From a virus, in IMG/VR virus record IMGVR_UViG_3300032516_000178, positions 1 through 25,742 of that record: a stretch of DNA of 25,742 bases; one strand, 5' to 3'. Position numbers and translations under genes: made by a program. This document shows positions 2,095 to 12,512 of this stretch, in pieces. The notes beneath the pieces are model-generated. The model worked only from the letters and a program-made list of their open reading frames with translations. It did not search any database and was not told where the DNA came from. Every line of letters starts with the position of its first letter. The first letter of the stretch is position 1.

Positions 2095-2574
2095 TCACAC
2101 CCACGGCCAGGGCGTCCAGCCGTTGGCGTCGTGAGCCCGTTTGCCGTGAGCCAGACTTGTAGGTCCGTGGTAGGGATTCCAGCGATTAGACCACCAGTCC
2201 GGACCGAACTGGAGAAGGCCCGCGTAGTAGCCAGAGAAGGCGTTAGGGTCGCCGCCGCTTTCGGTCGAGATGACAAGCATGAGGGTGGGAAAGTCGCACC
2301 ATTGCCAGCCAACTCGCCTTGCAGACCGGACCCACCTTGCCACTGCGTTTCCGTACTGAGCGGTGTATCGCCGAGTCGCACTCTCGACATGGCGAGCCTC
2401 GCGGAGTCGCGCCTGAGCCCGGGCAACGGCGCGCTCGGCGTCGCGAACGTAGTGGTGGGCCTCGCGGACGGAGCACGCACCAGACGCCGCGCGAGCAGGG
2501 CTAGCAATGGCAGGCAGCAGAGCCCCAAGCAGAACGACCAGCGTGATAGCGAAGGTTGTTTTGCCATGACGCAC
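2095..2574 (-). CDS. Secreted lysozyme/transglycosylase-like enzyme
   Basis: The 159-aa protein begins with a Sec signal peptide: basic start, hydrophobic core at residues 8-24 and a probable cut after ASPARA at residue 29. An Ala/Arg-rich helical stretch covers about 37-75. The catalytic-looking block is LMLVISTESGGDPNAFSG, with Glu105 as candidate acid, followed by YYAGLLQF, which resembles the Gly-Leu-Met-Gln motif of SLT/Rpf-type muramidases. Cys34 and Cys93 could form a disulfide after export. GTG 2574 is chosen because AAGGAGGT precedes it by about five bases; an overlapping ATG frame gives only a shadow. It would cut cell-wall glycan from outside the membrane. It opens the lysis cassette, upstream of the holin. 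Confidence 0.7.
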   Translation of the reverse strand: MRHGKTTFAITLVVLLGALLPAIASPARAASGACSVREAHHYVRDAERAVARAQARLREARHVESATRRYTAQYGNAVARWVRSARRVGWQWCDFPTLMLVISTESGGDPNAFSGYYAGLLQFGPDWWSNRWNPYHGPTSLAHGKRAHDANGWTPWPWV

Positions 2575-2787: not shown

Positions 2788-3120
2788 CTAGGCCGCCTTG
2801 ACCGTGACCGTGCCCTTCGCTCGCAGCAGCGGAATCTCCACGCCTCCGCTAGTCTTCGTGAGCCTTGTCACGATGCGGTACTTGCCGACTGCCGTGCCGC
2901 CGAGAGCGGCGAGCTTGGCCTTGCCGTAGTGCTTGCCGTCGACGGTCGACAGCGCGGCGGTGGTGAAAGACGCGGGAGCATCGACGAACGCGCTGCCGAG
3001 CGCGACCATTGCCGCCGCCGCCGTCCAGTCGGCGGATACATAGGTGAAGCCCAGCGCCTCGCACTCGACCTCAAAGACCACGTACTCGTCGGTACCAATG
3101 GTGTAAACTGCGTCGCTCAT
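2788..3120 (-). CDS. Small beta-rich adsorption-region protein (110 aa)
   Basis: The start ATG 3120 overlaps the stop of the 1074-aa fibre gene by ATGA, so the two are coupled. The sequence alternates hydrophobic and polar residues throughout, with two likely beta-sheet halves: residues 5-35 (YTIGTDEYVVFEVE) and 70-108 (KYRIVTRLTK ... GTVTVKAA). It has no signal peptide or membrane span and suggests an immunoglobulin-like or BppU-like beta-sandwich. Small proteins of this kind often follow large fibre genes in phages, as accessory receptor-binding or fibre-capping units. I see no diagnostic motif, so the role is inferred from position and fold type. Confidence 0.55.
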   Translation of the reverse strand: MSDAVYTIGTDEYVVFEVECEALGFTYVSADWTAAAAMVALGSAFVDAPASFTTAALSTVDGKHYGKAKLAALGGTAVGKYRIVTRLTKTSGGVEIPLLRAKGTVTVKAA

Positions 3121-6100
3121 TTCTCATCCCTTCTCGTGGCGGCCTTCCAACCGCTCGGTTGCATGTCGGCCTCCCAGCCGCCTGCGCGAAGGTGGGCCGC
3201 CCACGCCTCGCCTTGCGTCTCCGCCGTCCAGCCTTCGGGCAGGATCCGCGCCTGCCAGCCGTTCGGCATGAGCGTGACCGCGAACACGAGGTTCAAGGCG
3301 ATATCGCGCGTGCCGGTGACGCTGACGCGAGAAACGGCCTCACTGATGAGCTCAAGCTCGCGCGTGACGTTGGCGTTTTTCTGCGCGGCGACGGTGACCG
3401 ACGATACGGCTTCGCTCGCGAGGGCGAGCTCCCAGACCGCGTGCGCGGCGGTGCCCGTCACCACGACCGCGGACTTCGCCTCGCTGGTCAGGTTCATCTC
3501 CAGCGTCTGGTGCGCGGCGGAGCCGGCGACGACCACGCTGCTGACGGACTCCGAGGCGAGCGCGAGCTCCCAGGTGGCGTGAACGATCGCGCCGGCGATG
3601 GTGACGTTGCTGACGGCCTCCGAGGCGAGCGCGAGTTCATGGGTGGTGCCCGACTCGGCAACGGAGCCCGCGACGGTGACGGCGCTCTTAGCCTCCGAGG
3701 CGAGGGCGAGTTCAAGGACCTGGTGTGCGACGCTGCCCGCGACGACGACCGCGCTCTTAGCCTCAGACGCCAGCGCGAGTTCCTGAGTGACGCCGCCCTC
3801 CGCAACGCTGCCGATGACCACCACGGCCGAGACAGCCTCCGAGGCGAGGGCGAGTTCCCAAACGGCGTGGCTGACGCTGCCGACCACGACGACCGCGCTC
3901 TTAGCCTCGCTGGTCAGAGCCAACTCGTGCGTGACGCCAGCCTCGGCAACCGAGCCTGTGATGACGACCGCGCTGACCGCCTCGCTGGTCAGAGCCAACT
4001 CATACGTCGTGCCGCCTATCCCCTTGATGGAGACAGCCCAGCCGATGCCCCACTCAGTCGAAGACGGCGTGACCGTGTAGGTCTTGGCTCCAGCCGAGGC
4101 TTCGCTTCCGGTAGCCGCCCCGAGGTAGATGTAGCCAGCGGAGGCGACGCCGAAGTCGAGTCGTTCGGTGAGGCCGTCCCAACTGGTGAAGCTGCGAGCC
4201 GCACTGGAGTCGATGCCGCAGAAGACGGCGACGACGCAGTCGTTTACAGACGTGGTGACGGAGATGTCGTGCGTAGCTTCGGAGCTCGTCGTGCCGCCGC
4301 CGGTCGGTGCTGTCGAATGATCGACGTGAGGCGTGCCAACGGCATCAAGCGCGCCGTGCAGGGCGACCATCGCAGCGGCCCAGTTGGTGGTGCCCGAGAG
4401 TGAAGCGCCGAAGTCGTCCGCGCTGGTGCCGTCTGCGACGCGGGTGAACAGCCAGGCGCCGTGGTTGCCGCTGACGACGGGAGCCGAACCGATAGTGCCG
4501 CCTTGACAGGTCCAGCCCGTGACGGTATTGAAGTAGCGCGAGGTCGAGTCTTGGGTCACCTCCACGATGAGGAGGTCGCCCGACGCACGCCCTGTGGCGC
4601 TGGCAGAGAGCCCCATCGGCCCGGAAGAGGGCGTATCGACCGCAGAGGTGTTGGACGTTACCCCAACGTAGGCGGCCGGGGTGCCTCCGCCGGCCTCTCC
4701 TCCAGTGACCTCGATAGCAGACTTGGCCTCGCTCGTCAGTGCCAGTTCGTGGGTAGTGCCGCCGGCCTCCGTCACGCTCCCGGCGACGACGACCGCGCTA
4801 TTGGCCTCGGACGTGAGGGCGAGTTCTAGGATCTGGTGGCTGACACTCCCCGCGACCGTGACCTCCGACTTGGCCTCACTGGCGAGGGCCAGTTCGAGCG
4901 TCTGGTGGGCGACGCTGCCGGCGACGACCACCGAGGACTTCGACTCTGAGGTGAAGGCGAGTTCATACGTGGCCGGAGCCTCGACGACCGTGCCTGCAGC
5001 GACGATCGCGCTCTTCGACTCACTCGTAAGGGCAAGCTCCCAGGTGGCATGGGTGAGCGTCCCAGCGGCGACAATGGCAGAGACGGACTCGGAGGTGAGG
5101 GCCAGCTCGAACGTCGTCCCGGTCTGGACGATGAGGATGACAATGCGCGTGTCGGAGAGCGTGACGGTGCCGGTGGTCGCGGGCTTGTAGCCAGCCACGC
5201 GGTTGCCGTCAGTAGGTGCCGTCCAGCTACCAGCACTCCTGACCAGCCCGCGTGTCGCAGCGAAGTTGGCGACCGAACTGCTGCTGATGGAAGACGAGGC
5301 AGCAGCCGTGTCTGAGGCACCTACATCACCGACGCCGACGCTCGTCTCGTTGGTGGCGTCGAGGCCGGTGGACTCGGTGTAGTAACTGGCCCCATCGTAG
5401 TGGCTACTGTTTAGCTGGATGCGCTGGTAGCCGCTGGTGTGTGAACCGGTGCCCGAGTCGGCGTGCCTGACCCGTGCGTGGATGGCGAACTTCGACAATC
5501 CGGCGGCGTTGGAGAGCTTGACCATCACGCAGATGCCGCCGAGGAACTGTTTGCGGGATGACGTAGCACCACCCTTGATGACACCGTTGTAGGTGTTCCC
5601 GTCGGTGAGGTTGGCCTTCACATCTCCGGTCTGGAGCAGGGTAAGATTGGCCGTCGCCACCGTGCTCGTTTCTGCCCCGGTGAGCGCCGTACCTCCCGTC
5701 CCGGCAGCGGTGAAGGTTTCCAACGTGGAGTAGGCGGTGTAGCTGGCGTTCTGCGCCATCGCCAAGTAGTTGATAACCACCGCCGAGATATCGGCCCATT
5801 CGGCGGCGACGTACTTCCAGCCCGCATAGAACCTTGGCGTGCCTTCGGCATAGGTGGCGGTGTACTTGGAGTCGATGAGATCGACAGTGGCGTTGTCGGC
5901 CAGCGTCGCGGAGAAGCCACCCGAGAGCATGGGGATGTAACTGACGGCCTTGGTCGGGTTGGTGATCTCCACCTTGACGCTGCCTGAGTAGACGAGCAAC
6001 GTCGCTGCCGTCCCGGCGCTGGTCCTGATGAAGTAGTAACCGAGTCCGTTATAAGGCGTGAACGTGCCCCGGTAGGTCGTGCGCGTCTGGCTGTTGGCGG

Positions 6101-6341
6101 GCGAGAGGGTACAGACCGAGGTGAGCGAGGCGACCGAGTTGATGGTTGTCGAGTAGACCAGTTCGACGGTCATGCTGGCAGCCGTTGTGGTGACCGTCGC
6201 CTCGAACGTCCACGTCAGCGCGTCCCCGGCCCACTCCGCCGTATCGATGGGCTGCTGCGTGCGCCACCAAGTGACTGCCCCGGCGGCGTTGGTGAGGCCG
6301 AGGTTGACGAGCGGTATGAAAAACTCAGCCTTGGGGGCCAT
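3117..6341 (-). CDS. Giant repeat-containing tail fibre / adhesin (1074 aa)
   Basis: Residues about 1-411 look like two beta-rich, jelly-roll-type domains. Residues 412-548 hold six tandem repeats, 549-780 a separate globular domain (GNHGAWLFTRVADGTSADDF; WAAAMVALHGALDAVGTP), and 781-1011 ten more repeats. The repeat consensus is ELAL(T/A)SEA(K/V)SAVVVAGSV plus a short linker. The C-terminus (1025-1074) carries five Trp-x-Ala units with Trp exactly every nine residues (1029, 1038, 1047, 1056, 1065). There is no signal peptide. Its size, place after the hub and amidase genes, and beta-rich repeats point to a virion fibre or adhesin that contacts the host surface. ATG 6341 follows GGGGGCACCTG, 15 bases after the previous stop. 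I do not recognise the repeat as a named family. Confidence 0.7.
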   Translation of the reverse strand: MAPKAEFFIPLVNLGLTNAAGAVTWWRTQQPIDTAEWAGDALTWTFEATVTTTAASMTVELVYSTTINSVASLTSVCTLSPANSQTRTTYRGTFTPYNGLGYYFIRTSAGTAATLLVYSGSVKVEITNPTKAVSYIPMLSGGFSATLADNATVDLIDSKYTATYAEGTPRFYAGWKYVAAEWADISAVVINYLAMAQNASYTAYSTLETFTAAGTGGTALTGAETSTVATANLTLLQTGDVKANLTDGNTYNGVIKGGATSSRKQFLGGICVMVKLSNAAGLSKFAIHARVRHADSGTGSHTSGYQRIQLNSSHYDGASYYTESTGLDATNETSVGVGDVGASDTAAASSSISSSSVANFAATRGLVRSAGSWTAPTDGNRVAGYKPATTGTVTLSDTRIVILIVQTGTTFELALTSESVSAIVAAGTLTHATWELALTSESKSAIVAAGTVVEAPATYELAFTSESKSSVVVAGSVAHQTLELALASEAKSEVTVAGSVSHQILELALTSEANSAVVVAGSVTEAGGTTHELALTSEAKSAIEVTGGEAGGGTPAAYVGVTSNTSAVDTPSSGPMGLSASATGRASGDLLIVEVTQDSTSRYFNTVTGWTCQGGTIGSAPVVSGNHGAWLFTRVADGTSADDFGASLSGTTNWAAAMVALHGALDAVGTPHVDHSTAPTGGGTTSSEATHDISVTTSVNDCVVAVFCGIDSSAARSFTSWDGLTERLDFGVASAGYIYLGAATGSEASAGAKTYTVTPSSTEWGIGWAVSIKGIGGTTYELALTSEAVSAVVITGSVAEAGVTHELALTSEAKSAVVVVGSVSHAVWELALASEAVSAVVVIGSVAEGGVTQELALASEAKSAVVVAGSVAHQVLELALASEAKSAVTVAGSVAESGTTHELALASEAVSNVTIAGAIVHATWELALASESVSSVVVAGSAAHQTLEMNLTSEAKSAVVVTGTAAHAVWELALASEAVSSVTVAAQKNANVTRELELISEAVSRVSVTGTRDIALNLVFAVTLMPNGWQARILPEGWTAETQGEAWAAHLRAGGWEADMQPSGWKAATRRDEK
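3309..4001 (-). repeat. Protein-coding tandem repeat array B (ten units)
   Basis: Ten direct repeats of 69-75 bp encode residues 781-1011 of the fibre. From Glu to Glu the unit lengths are 25, 23, 25, 23, 25, 23, 23, 23 and 24 residues. Linkers fall into three classes: HAV/HAT before Trp, HQV/HQT before Leu, and EAG-T/ESG-T before His or Gln. Nucleotide similarity between units is high, so the array could expand or contract by recombination. Confidence 0.85.
4698..5108 (-). repeat. Protein-coding tandem repeat array A (six units)
   Basis: Six direct repeats of 69-78 bp encode residues 412-548 of the same fibre, with Glu-to-Glu lengths of 23, 25, 23, 23 and 26 residues. The consensus and linker classes match array B, so the arrays share an origin. 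They are separated by about 700 bp encoding the globular domain. Confidence 0.85.
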
Positions 6342-10664: not shown

Positions 10665-12512
10665 TTAGAGTGCGGTCCTCGTAAACGCCGTTGACAGAGT
10701 GTACTTGTAGGTCGCGTTCGATACCGTCAACGTGTAGGCAGTGGAGTTGAAGGTGATTTTCAGGCGGTTGCCCGTCGTGTTGTTGTCTTGTATCCAGACG
10801 CCGTCCGCAGAGCTCCAGCCACTAGGCGTACCGGGAAAGTCGGTCTGCGGGTGGATCTTGCCGTCAACGTGAAGGCCACCCGATACGTCGACCACCGTGC
10901 CGGTGAGGGCGACCGACGCGGGGATTGTCACCGTGCCGGTATCCCCTCCAGCGGCGGTGATGGTGTTCGTCCACAGCCTCGCAACGCCGCATTCAGAGGT
11001 GACCACGAGCACGCCGGTCAGCGTAGCGTGTGCCGAAGAGTCGCCGATTTCCAGAGAGCAACTGTTGCCGTATTGGTACACGCTGCCCGTGGTAGCCGAG
11101 CCGATTCTGATGTACGAGGAGCCGCCCCACAGTTCAACGCGACCAGCGTTCTGCCCCACGTTGACAGACGCATTGTTCCCGTTCAACGCGACCCAGTTGG
11201 CGGTGTCAACGGTGTTCAAGCTCATGGCTGGTCCACCGTGACCACAGTTTGTGCCCTGGAACAGCACGAATGCAGAGTCTGCGCCAGCTGTCGAAACCTG
11301 GATAAAGGCACTCGCAGTCTCCCCCGCGACCCCGCTGTACAGACTGATACGGTCACGCAGACTGTTCGTCATCTCGATGCGGTTGCCCGAATCGTAGGTG
11401 CGGATCGTCCCGCCCGTGATGGTAGCCGAGGTCAGCTCGACGGCCACACTGATCGTCCCGGCCGTGAGCTTCGCCACGTCCAGCGTGGCGATGACGGCGT
11501 TGTTCATGGTCACGAGCTGCCACGAGGTGCCGCCCTGGCCGACGTACTGCGCGATGACCTGATTGGCCTCGCCGCCGGTGCCGTAGCGGAACCACACGTC
11601 GCCCGCGAGGTTGGCGGTCGCGCCGGGCACGCCGGAATCGTAGAAGATGCGGTTCTTGCCGTTGGCCGAGGTCTGGATGACGCCGTAGACGGTGCCGAGG
11701 CAGGTGAAGCTCGTGGAGGTCGCGCTGCCGGCCTCACTGTAGACCTTGATGACGCCCGTCACCGCGCCCTCGGGGACGTAGGCGATGAGGCTCGTGGCCG
11801 ACGCGGCGCGGAACACGGCCGGAATCTCAGTCGCGCCCGCGCCCGTGAAGGTGACGCCGGTCACGACGACGAGGCCGGCGGCCGTCCAGAAGTTCGTCCC
11901 CGTGATCGTGATGAGCGCCTGCTCGCCAGCCGACGTGGGCGTGAACGACGTGACGGTGGGGATGAGGCCCACGGGGTAGGTGAAGTTGTCGTTCGCCGTG
12001 TTGGCGCTGATGCCGTAGGCGTTGACCACGGCCACGTCGACGACGCCGCTGCCTGCCGGGGTGGTGACGGCCAAGGCGGTATCGGAGGTAACGGTGAACT
12101 GCGCCAAGGCGGTGCCGAAGAGGACGGCCGTGGCCGTCGTGAAGCCGGTGCCGTTGACCGTCACGGCGTCGCCGCCGTCGTTGTCGACCGCCGAGCTGGG
12201 GACGACGGAGGTCACCGTGGGCGCGGAGCCGCCGCCGCCGCCGGGCGGTCCTTCGTAGGTATCGTAGGTCCAGTTGCTACCGACCGTGGGGGTGCCGCCA
12301 GGGGTCGTGACCTTGACCGAGACGGTGCCGCTGCCGGCCGGGGCGTAGGCGCGTATCTTCGTGCCGGAGACGACGGAGAAGCGCGTGCCCGCACTGACGG
12401 CGCCGAACTTGACCGCTGAGGTGTCCTCCGTGAAGCCGGTGCCGGTGAGGGTGATGAGGGTGCCGGCGGGGCCGCTGGCGGGGTCGAGCGCGGTGACGGT
12501 CGCCGCGGCCAT
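10665..12512 (-). CDS. Tail protein with three IPT/TIG domains (615 aa)
   Basis: Three immunoglobulin-like IPT/TIG domains are arranged in tandem at about residues 4-85, 97-180 and 185-271. Each begins TVT(A/S)..P.SG and contains a GTGF or GTNF turn. A Pro-Gly-rich linker (PPGGGGG) separates the first two. The rest (275-615) resembles the beta-rich distal part of tail-tip/central-fibre proteins, with NNAVIATLDVAKLTAGTI, then repeated short strands, then a compact end domain. IPT/TIG domains on virions often add weak carbohydrate or surface binding. ATG 12512 overlaps the preceding stop by TGATG. The first domain shares 33 identical bases with the neck connector gene. A minor tail/adhesion role is likely; the exact place in the virion is unknown. 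Confidence 0.7.
   Translation of the reverse strand: MAAATVTALDPASGPAGTLITLTGTGFTEDTSAVKFGAVSAGTRFSVVSGTKIRAYAPAGSGTVSVKVTTPGGTPTVGSNWTYDTYEGPPGGGGGSAPTVTSVVPSSAVDNDGGDAVTVNGTGFTTATAVLFGTALAQFTVTSDTALAVTTPAGSGVVDVAVVNAYGISANTANDNFTYPVGLIPTVTSFTPTSAGEQALITITGTNFWTAAGLVVVTGVTFTGAGATEIPAVFRAASATSLIAYVPEGAVTGVIKVYSEAGSATSTSFTCLGTVYGVIQTSANGKNRIFYDSGVPGATANLAGDVWFRYGTGGEANQVIAQYVGQGGTSWQLVTMNNAVIATLDVAKLTAGTISVAVELTSATITGGTIRTYDSGNRIEMTNSLRDRISLYSGVAGETASAFIQVSTAGADSAFVLFQGTNCGHGGPAMSLNTVDTANWVALNGNNASVNVGQNAGRVELWGGSSYIRIGSATTGSVYQYGNSCSLEIGDSSAHATLTGVLVVTSECGVARLWTNTITAAGGDTGTVTIPASVALTGTVVDVSGGLHVDGKIHPQTDFPGTPSGWSSADGVWIQDNNTTGNRLKITFNSTAYTLTVSNATYKYTLSTAFTRTAL
12468..12500. repeat. 33-bp direct repeat, copy 1 (in tail IPT/TIG gene)
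   Basis: This stretch is identical base for base to 18017-18049, about 5.5 kb away. On the minus strand both encode TVTALDPASGP at the start of an IPT/TIG domain. The identity covers third codon positions too, so recent copying or gene conversion is more likely than protein-level conservation alone. Confidence 0.85.

What the first reader, a model, noticed from the sequence alone, without database searches (positions are those of the whole stretch)
3117..6341. Split repeat shaft: 6 + 10 near-identical 23-26-residue repeats around a globular domain in one fibre
The sequence shows 16 copies of ELAL(T/A)SEA(K/V)SAVVVAGSV plus a linker, at residues 412-548 and 781-1011, with a 232-residue non-repeat domain inserted between array A and array B. 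Unit lengths alternate, mostly 23 and 25 residues, and linkers fall into three recurring classes (HA-W, HQ-L, EAG-T-H). I know of no named repeat with this consensus. Inference: the arrays form beta-structured stalks that space receptor-binding domains, and unit number may change by recombination between similar DNA copies, tuning reach or host range.
Basis: partly seen in the sequence, partly recalled or inferred. Interest (0 to 1): 0.72.

Follow-up and report, generated by a model that had tools for sequence, protein, structure and literature searches.

The report
Repeat-built stalk of phage adhesin
An environmental phage gene encodes a likely cell-attachment fibre built from 16 copies of a 23-26-residue beta repeat with a separate domain inserted between them; related phages keep the repeat but change its copy number and swap the inserted domain, and similar periodic proteins sit beside the same fibre gene in many phages.

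Summary
In detail: ORF 3117-6341(-) (1074 aa) has 6 + 10 units at aa 412-548 and 781-1011, split by 232 residues. The copies are not near-identical: 59% DNA and 62% protein identity over the 21-residue core, with synonymous codons randomised. No Pfam, PHROG, NCBIfam or PDB family fits. Five other IMG/VR phages carry the repeat: 14, 16, 7+14, about 24-25, and at least 6 (truncated) units; sister phages at about 87-95% DNA identity have 14 versus 16. Domains beside or between arrays differ. In the window and four relatives the gene lies 1-2 genes below a Gp80-like gene (PF23140, GP4 fibre I), shared at 87-92% protein identity even between largely unrelated backbones. AlphaFold2 gives two beta strands per unit (pLDDT 78), resembling a two-strand beta-solenoid. 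In 7 of 8 sampled named phages a gene directly beside Gp80 is also periodic (mostly 20 residues), against 1 of 86 other genes. Best reading: the stalk of the adhesin payload in a GP4-fibre-I-type attachment cassette. New variant of a known kind; receptor, oligomer and virion location are untested.

The parts
3117..6341 (-). repeat-bearing fibre / adhesin payload gene, 1074 aa
   Evidence: ORF; 16 units; follows a Gp80-like gene as in relatives
5109..6341 (-). N-terminal non-repeat region, aa 1-411
   Evidence: 30% identity over 148 residues, E 1e-11, to the N-terminal region of the L007 fibre; no Pfam or phage match
4698..5108 (-). array A, 6 units, aa 412-548
4002..4697 (-). inserted globular domain, aa 549-780, lying at the length-variable linker position between two units
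   Evidence: 28% identity over 189 residues, E 3e-7, to the domain preceding the repeats in L009; no Pfam, PHROG, NCBIfam or cultured-phage match
3309..4001 (-). array B, 10 units, aa 781-1011
   Evidence: AlphaFold2 of aa 852-968 (5 units) pLDDT 77.9, pTM 0.68, two strands per unit
3120..3282 (-). C-terminal tryptophan repeat, aa about 1020-1074, Trp every 9 residues
   Evidence: similar W-repeat C-termini in L006, L008, L010 and in genes beside divergent Gp80 genes of L018-L021
2788..3120 (-). small 110-aa gene overlapping the fibre gene by 4 bases
   Evidence: small genes follow the fibre in L006, L007, L008, L010; 21-23% identity in alignment, pairwise E 9e-4 with L007
6357..7238 (-). Gp80-like (PF23140, podophage GP4 fibre I) gene immediately upstream
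   Evidence: Pfam E 1.4e-26; 64-68% identity to the gene upstream of the repeat fibre in L006, L007, L009, L010

Best explanation
The gene encodes the adhesin payload of a phage attachment cassette of the GP4-fibre-I kind. Each 23-26-residue unit forms two short beta strands (ELALxSE and SAVVVAG) with a tight SEAxS turn and a variable second loop; the units stack into a beta-solenoid-like stalk. The variable loop is where large domains are accepted, so the stalk acts as a modular rod that carries and spaces exchangeable binding or enzymatic domains. The Gp80-like protein encoded upstream would be the fibril linking the payload to the virion, and the small protein encoded downstream may help attach or assemble it. 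Shown by computation: the units, their conservation, copy-number variation, domain exchange, the neighbourhood and the association with PF23140. Inferred: solenoid geometry in the real oligomer, virion location, receptor binding, and the roles of the neighbours.
For: Repeats. Same repeat in 5 further phages. The gene follows the Gp80-like gene directly (window, L007) or after one gene (L006, L009, L010); Gp80-like is 64-68% identical to the window's and 87-92% between relatives, while TerL is about 27%, portal about 25% or undetected, and G001 shares little with G002/G004 by blastn outside Gp80 and, for G002, the repeats and short pieces: an exchanged cassette. G002 and G004 match at 87-94% DNA over long stretches up to the end of Gp80, but no blastn match covers their fibres, whose domains differ. 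Unit counts 16, 14, 16, 21, about 24-25, at least 6; sisters L006/L010 keep end units and differ inside. AlphaFold2 pLDDT 77.9 with two strands per unit; VIA-align matches to two-strand solenoids such as SufB/SufD, Z 8.6-10.1 at rmsd 2.5-2.8. Adjacent-gene periodicity beside PF23140 in named phages: 7 of 8 versus 1 of 86 other genes. A published working model for phage LSH1 has a GP4-like fibril, an Ig-fold protein and a payload with a poorly predicted beta-helical C-terminus (PMC13243795); a large protein of its named relative Slicko01 carries a 20-residue repeat array near a weak PF23140 match.
Against: No virion proteomics, no receptor, no host. The structure is a monomer prediction from a shallow alignment (15 rows); fibre shafts are usually trimers and could fold otherwise. 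The solenoid resemblance is below the level the tool calls safe for repeats, and the top row (CsgA, Z 14.9) has rmsd 8.9. The insert has no solved or annotated relative found here. In the 8-locus test the neighbouring gene was chosen on either side after inspection and four of the phages are mycobacteriophages, so the counts are not fully independent. The Slicko01 protein was identified by size, duplicated domains and neighbours, not by comparison with LSH1 itself.
Confidence: 0.72

Rival explanations
1. The repeats form a trimeric, intertwined beta shaft (beta-spiral or beta-prism, as in adenovirus fibre or some phage fibres) rather than a monomeric two-strand solenoid. This concerns the shape only and is compatible with the adhesin role.
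For: Tail fibres are commonly trimers (general knowledge); two short strands per repeat would also suit a spiral; the LSH1 authors describe a fibre chain predicted alone that made sense only as an interdigitated trimer (PMC13243795).
Against: The unit is 23-26 residues against about 15 in adenovirus shafts (general knowledge); the monomer model aligns with two-strand solenoids at rmsd 2.5-2.8 over most of its length. Oligomers could not be modelled here.
Confidence: 0.35
2. A passive spacer or structural tail protein (minor tail or collar decoration) with no receptor-binding role.
For: PHROG 240 calls the Gp80-like neighbour a head protein; no receptor evidence; L006 and L010 have the array with almost no other domain.
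Against: Exchange of lectin-like and enzyme-like domains in the same slot; sharing of the cassette between backbones; a tryptophan-repeat C-terminus also in Gp80-adjacent genes of distant phages.
Confidence: 0.2
3. Unit number is changed often by slippage between near-identical DNA copies, giving rapid tuning of fibre length.
For: 14 versus 16 units between sister phages.
Against: In the window the copies are only 59% identical in DNA, codons are randomised and the longest exact match is 24 nt.
Confidence: 0.15
4. The repeat belongs to a known family, as Pfam hits suggest (Dna2 in the window; SymE and Beta_helix in L008).
For: Hits pass curated cut-offs: Dna2 23 and 27 bits against 22.4, SymE 38 against 29, Beta_helix 30 against 25.9.
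Against: The Dna2 and SymE matches cover 18-39 residues of unrelated enzyme or toxin families, no stretch passes on its own in the full proteins, and the families named differ between relatives: chance sums over repeats. Beta_helix names a general fold type and agrees with a beta-structured stack.
Confidence: 0.02

Closest known systems
PF23140-associated fibre cassette: GP4 fibre I (Gp80) and the LSH1 gp34-gp36 module (PMC13243795)
   Same: Gp80-like gene beside a payload gene with extra domains plus a repetitive beta region, and a small neighbouring gene
   Different: 23-26-residue unit instead of about 20; a domain splits two arrays; no detectable sequence homology of the repeat to the 20-residue versions; LSH1 itself was not available for comparison
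20-residue repeat proteins associated with Gp80 (Venkman gp51, MEP401 gp59, Kamiyu gp33, CELFI gp23, Slicko01 WGH49683)
   Same: tandem short units; next to or near a PF23140-like gene in the loci sampled (for Venkman only its relatives show this); Venkman gp51 also has a tryptophan-repeat C-terminus
   Different: period 20; profile-profile score no better than shuffled controls
Two-strand-per-turn beta-solenoids (SufB/SufD, CAP C-terminal domain, RTX beta-roll, curli CsgA)
   Same: predicted fold arrangement, about two strands per unit
   Different: no sequence relation; unrelated functions; model only
Adenovirus-type beta-spiral fibre shaft
   Same: repeat-built stalk carrying a binding domain (general knowledge)
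   Different: longer unit; domain inserted within the shaft; no sequence match in the PDB

Membership tests
GP4-fibre-I-type attachment cassette | PF23140 (Gp80) gene next to the payload gene | tested here: met
   (E 1.4e-26)
GP4-fibre-I-type attachment cassette | payload gene with additional globular domain plus periodic beta region | tested here: met
   relatives
GP4-fibre-I-type attachment cassette | a small Ig-fold partner encoded alongside (as LSH1 gp36) | tested here: inconclusive
   small genes of about 99-113 aa follow the fibre in relatives, but the fold was not predicted
GP4-fibre-I-type attachment cassette | physical link of Gp80-like fibril to payload on the virion | not testable with these tools
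   no structure or proteomics for this phage
20-residue Gp80-adjacent repeat family | homologous repeat sequence | tested here: not met
   hhalign score 8.7 against shuffled controls up to 14.3; 7.8 with 34 of 100 shuffles as good for L016
Two-strand beta-solenoid | about two strands per 20-26-residue coil, stacked | tested here: inconclusive
   AlphaFold2 pLDDT 77.9 and VIA Z about 10 at rmsd 2.5; Foldseek found nothing significant in PDB
Trimeric beta-spiral fibre shaft | trimer with interleaved strands | not testable with these tools
   single-chain prediction only
Pfam Dna2 (PF08696) | match over most of the 204-position domain profile | tested here: not met
   only 39 positions match, inside the repeats

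The most novel reading that the evidence does not exclude
Phages widely carry an unrecognised class of adhesin stalk: short two-strand beta-repeat arrays encoded beside GP4-fibre-I (PF23140) genes. The arrays diverge or are replaced (20- and 23-residue versions) while keeping their architecture, and their loops act as sockets for exchanging receptor-binding or enzyme domains between phage lineages.
Probability: 0.4. Interest if true: 0.65.

Novelty: new variant of a known kind. Interest (0 to 1): 0.5.

Why it matters
It gives a sequence handle for a kind of phage adhesin stalk that domain libraries miss and that structure predictors handle poorly. It may explain the poorly predicted beta-helical region reported next to GP4-like fibrils in phage LSH1 (PMC13243795), and it suggests where receptor-binding domains are swapped in uncultured phages. 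If the association with PF23140 holds broadly, adhesin genes could be located in many genomes by looking beside that gene for periodic proteins.

Tried and rejected
Pfam Dna2, SymE and Vgb_lyase hits on the repeats: rejected as chance sums over repeats. tblastn of the fibre, of its N-terminal region, of the insert and of the L008 and L010 repeat proteins against cultured phages: no match; with the L007 fibre only its lectin-like part matched, in cyanophages. Bacterial genome scans with the repeat and with Gp80-like: no relatives, so the host is unknown. Homology of the 23-residue unit with the 20-residue repeats: not detectable. The first AlphaFold2 job on a less well registered alignment gave pLDDT 65.6. 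Foldseek in PDB gave no significant match; the viral library gave one uninformative uncharacterised hit at E 4e-4. PDB sequence searches with the fibre, the repeat profile and the Gp80-like profile: none. A scan for relatives of the insert found none. Several paper searches found nothing on repeat number or solenoids in tail fibres.

Full report
What is there. The ORF 3117-6341 on the minus strand encodes 1074 residues. Unit lengths are 23-26, with alternation only in part. The copies are alike in protein (mean 62% over the 21-residue core) but old in DNA: 59% mean identity, synonymous codons as different as chance predicts, longest exact match 24 nt. The protein sequence therefore seems to be under strong selection and the copies are not recent duplicates. 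The C-terminus is a separate tryptophan repeat with exact 9-residue spacing.

Family status. No Pfam, PHROG or NCBIfam model, PDB chain or cultured-phage record matches credibly. The Dna2 and SymE hits are short chance matches on repeats. A profile-guided scan of IMG/VR found five other phages with the same unit. A further record, L011, is a 100% identical copy of the L009 phage contig over the part held.

Comparison of relatives. The unit profile gives 14 (L006), 16 (L010), 7 + 14 (L007), 24 (L008; 24-25 by two searches) and at least 6 (L009, cut by the contig end) against 16 in the window. L006 and L010 are sister phages, about 87-95% identical in DNA over long stretches. Their first two and last eight units correspond in order, though one of the eight pairs weakly, while the interior has four units in one and six in the other with mixed best matches. 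Domains around the arrays differ. In L007 a metallophosphoesterase-like region (weak, E 3e-4) and a laminin-G/concanavalin-like lectin domain (E 2e-16) lie between two arrays. In L009 a relative of the window's insert (28%) precedes the repeats. In L006 and L010 there is almost nothing but repeats. In L008 a lectin-domain ORF lies directly upstream. The insertions between arrays fall between complete units, at the loop whose length varies.

Neighbourhood. The gene directly upstream in the window is Gp80-like (PF23140, E 1.4e-26). In L007 it is also directly upstream; in L006, L009 and L010 one other gene lies between; the L008 contig is cut before this point. It is 64-68% identical to the window's protein and 87-92% identical among the others. 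Yet TerL and portal of the L006/L010 phages are only about 25-27% identical to the window's, and the TIG-domain and g8634 tail genes are shared well only with the L007/L009 group. Between G001 (L006) and G004 (L009), Gp80 is the only blastn match; between G001 and G002 (L007) the matches are Gp80, repeats and a few short pieces. G002 and G004 match at 87-94% over long stretches up to the end of Gp80, but their fibres give no blastn match. This is the pattern of an exchanged attachment cassette with a rapidly swapped payload.

Structure. With 15 registered five-unit windows, AlphaFold2 gave pLDDT 77.9 and pTM 0.68 with two strands per unit. VIA-align placed the model with two-strand-per-turn beta-solenoids, SufB/SufD at Z 8.6-10.1 with rmsd 2.5-2.8; the top row, CsgA, has rmsd 8.9. 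The tool warns that such Z values can reflect a common arrangement for repeats. The oligomer could not be modelled, so a trimeric shaft remains open.

A wider class. Distant relatives with about 30% identical Gp80-like genes (L018, L020, L021) encode short proteins nearby with 20-residue repeats and a similar tryptophan-repeat C-terminus. Venkman gp51 of a cultured Methylophilales phage is a homologue (E 4e-35) lying among tail-fibre genes. In eight named phages with PF23140-like matches, a gene directly adjacent to it is periodic at better than all 100 shuffles in seven, against 1 of 86 other genes. The side was chosen after looking and some of the phages are related, so this is strong but not a clean test. 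The repeat sequences of the 20- and 23-residue types are not detectably homologous. A 2026 paper on phage LSH1 proposes that an Ig-fold protein (gp36) attaches a GP4-like fibril (gp35) that carries a payload (gp34) whose C-terminus is a poorly predicted beta helix, and asks whether a repetitive motif is the reason (PMC13243795). In Slicko01, a relative named there, the 1843-aa protein I take to be the counterpart has a 20-residue repeat array in its C-terminal part, near a gene with a weak PF23140 match. That supports the repetitive-motif idea, though LSH1 itself was not available.

Verdict. The stalk-with-domains reading is well supported as a computational inference; receptor binding, virion location, oligomeric state and length tuning are not shown. 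It is a new variant of a known kind of attachment module, with a repeat for which I found no name.

Noticed in passing
window 3120-3282: C-terminal tryptophan repeat with exact 9-residue spacing, also at the end of Gp80-adjacent genes in distant phages.
   Followed up: partly
L046 11570-17101 (Slicko01 WGH49683): 1843-aa protein with duplicated N-terminal domains and about 25 units of a 20-residue repeat; probably the protein whose spacers PMC13243795 calls poorly predicted beta helix.
   Followed up: partly
L048, L050, L053, L055 next to PF23140-like genes: Minor tail or tail genes of MEP401, LeBron, Kamiyu and CELFI have 20-residue periodicity beside the Gp80-like gene.
   Followed up: partly
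L052 4719-7001 (Desulfofustis phage): Protein annotated as capsid protein beside a Gp80-like gene has a strong repeat at lag 28 (SYDLKLDVS motif); the annotation is doubtful.
   Followed up: no
window 3117-6341 and L008 551-2449: Pfam Dna2 and SymE models score above their curated cut-offs on these repeats: false positives that could mislead automatic annotation.
   Followed up: yes
L009 and L011: Two IMG/VR records of an identical phage both end inside the repeat fibre gene, perhaps because repeats break assembly.
   Followed up: partly
window 2095-2574: Small, possibly secreted lytic-transglycosylase-like protein near the fibre module (weak match only, E 0.06).
   Followed up: no
window 10665-12512: Protein with IPT/TIG domains, 48% identical over its first 250 residues to genes in the L007 and L009 phages but not found in L006/L010.
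   Followed up: no
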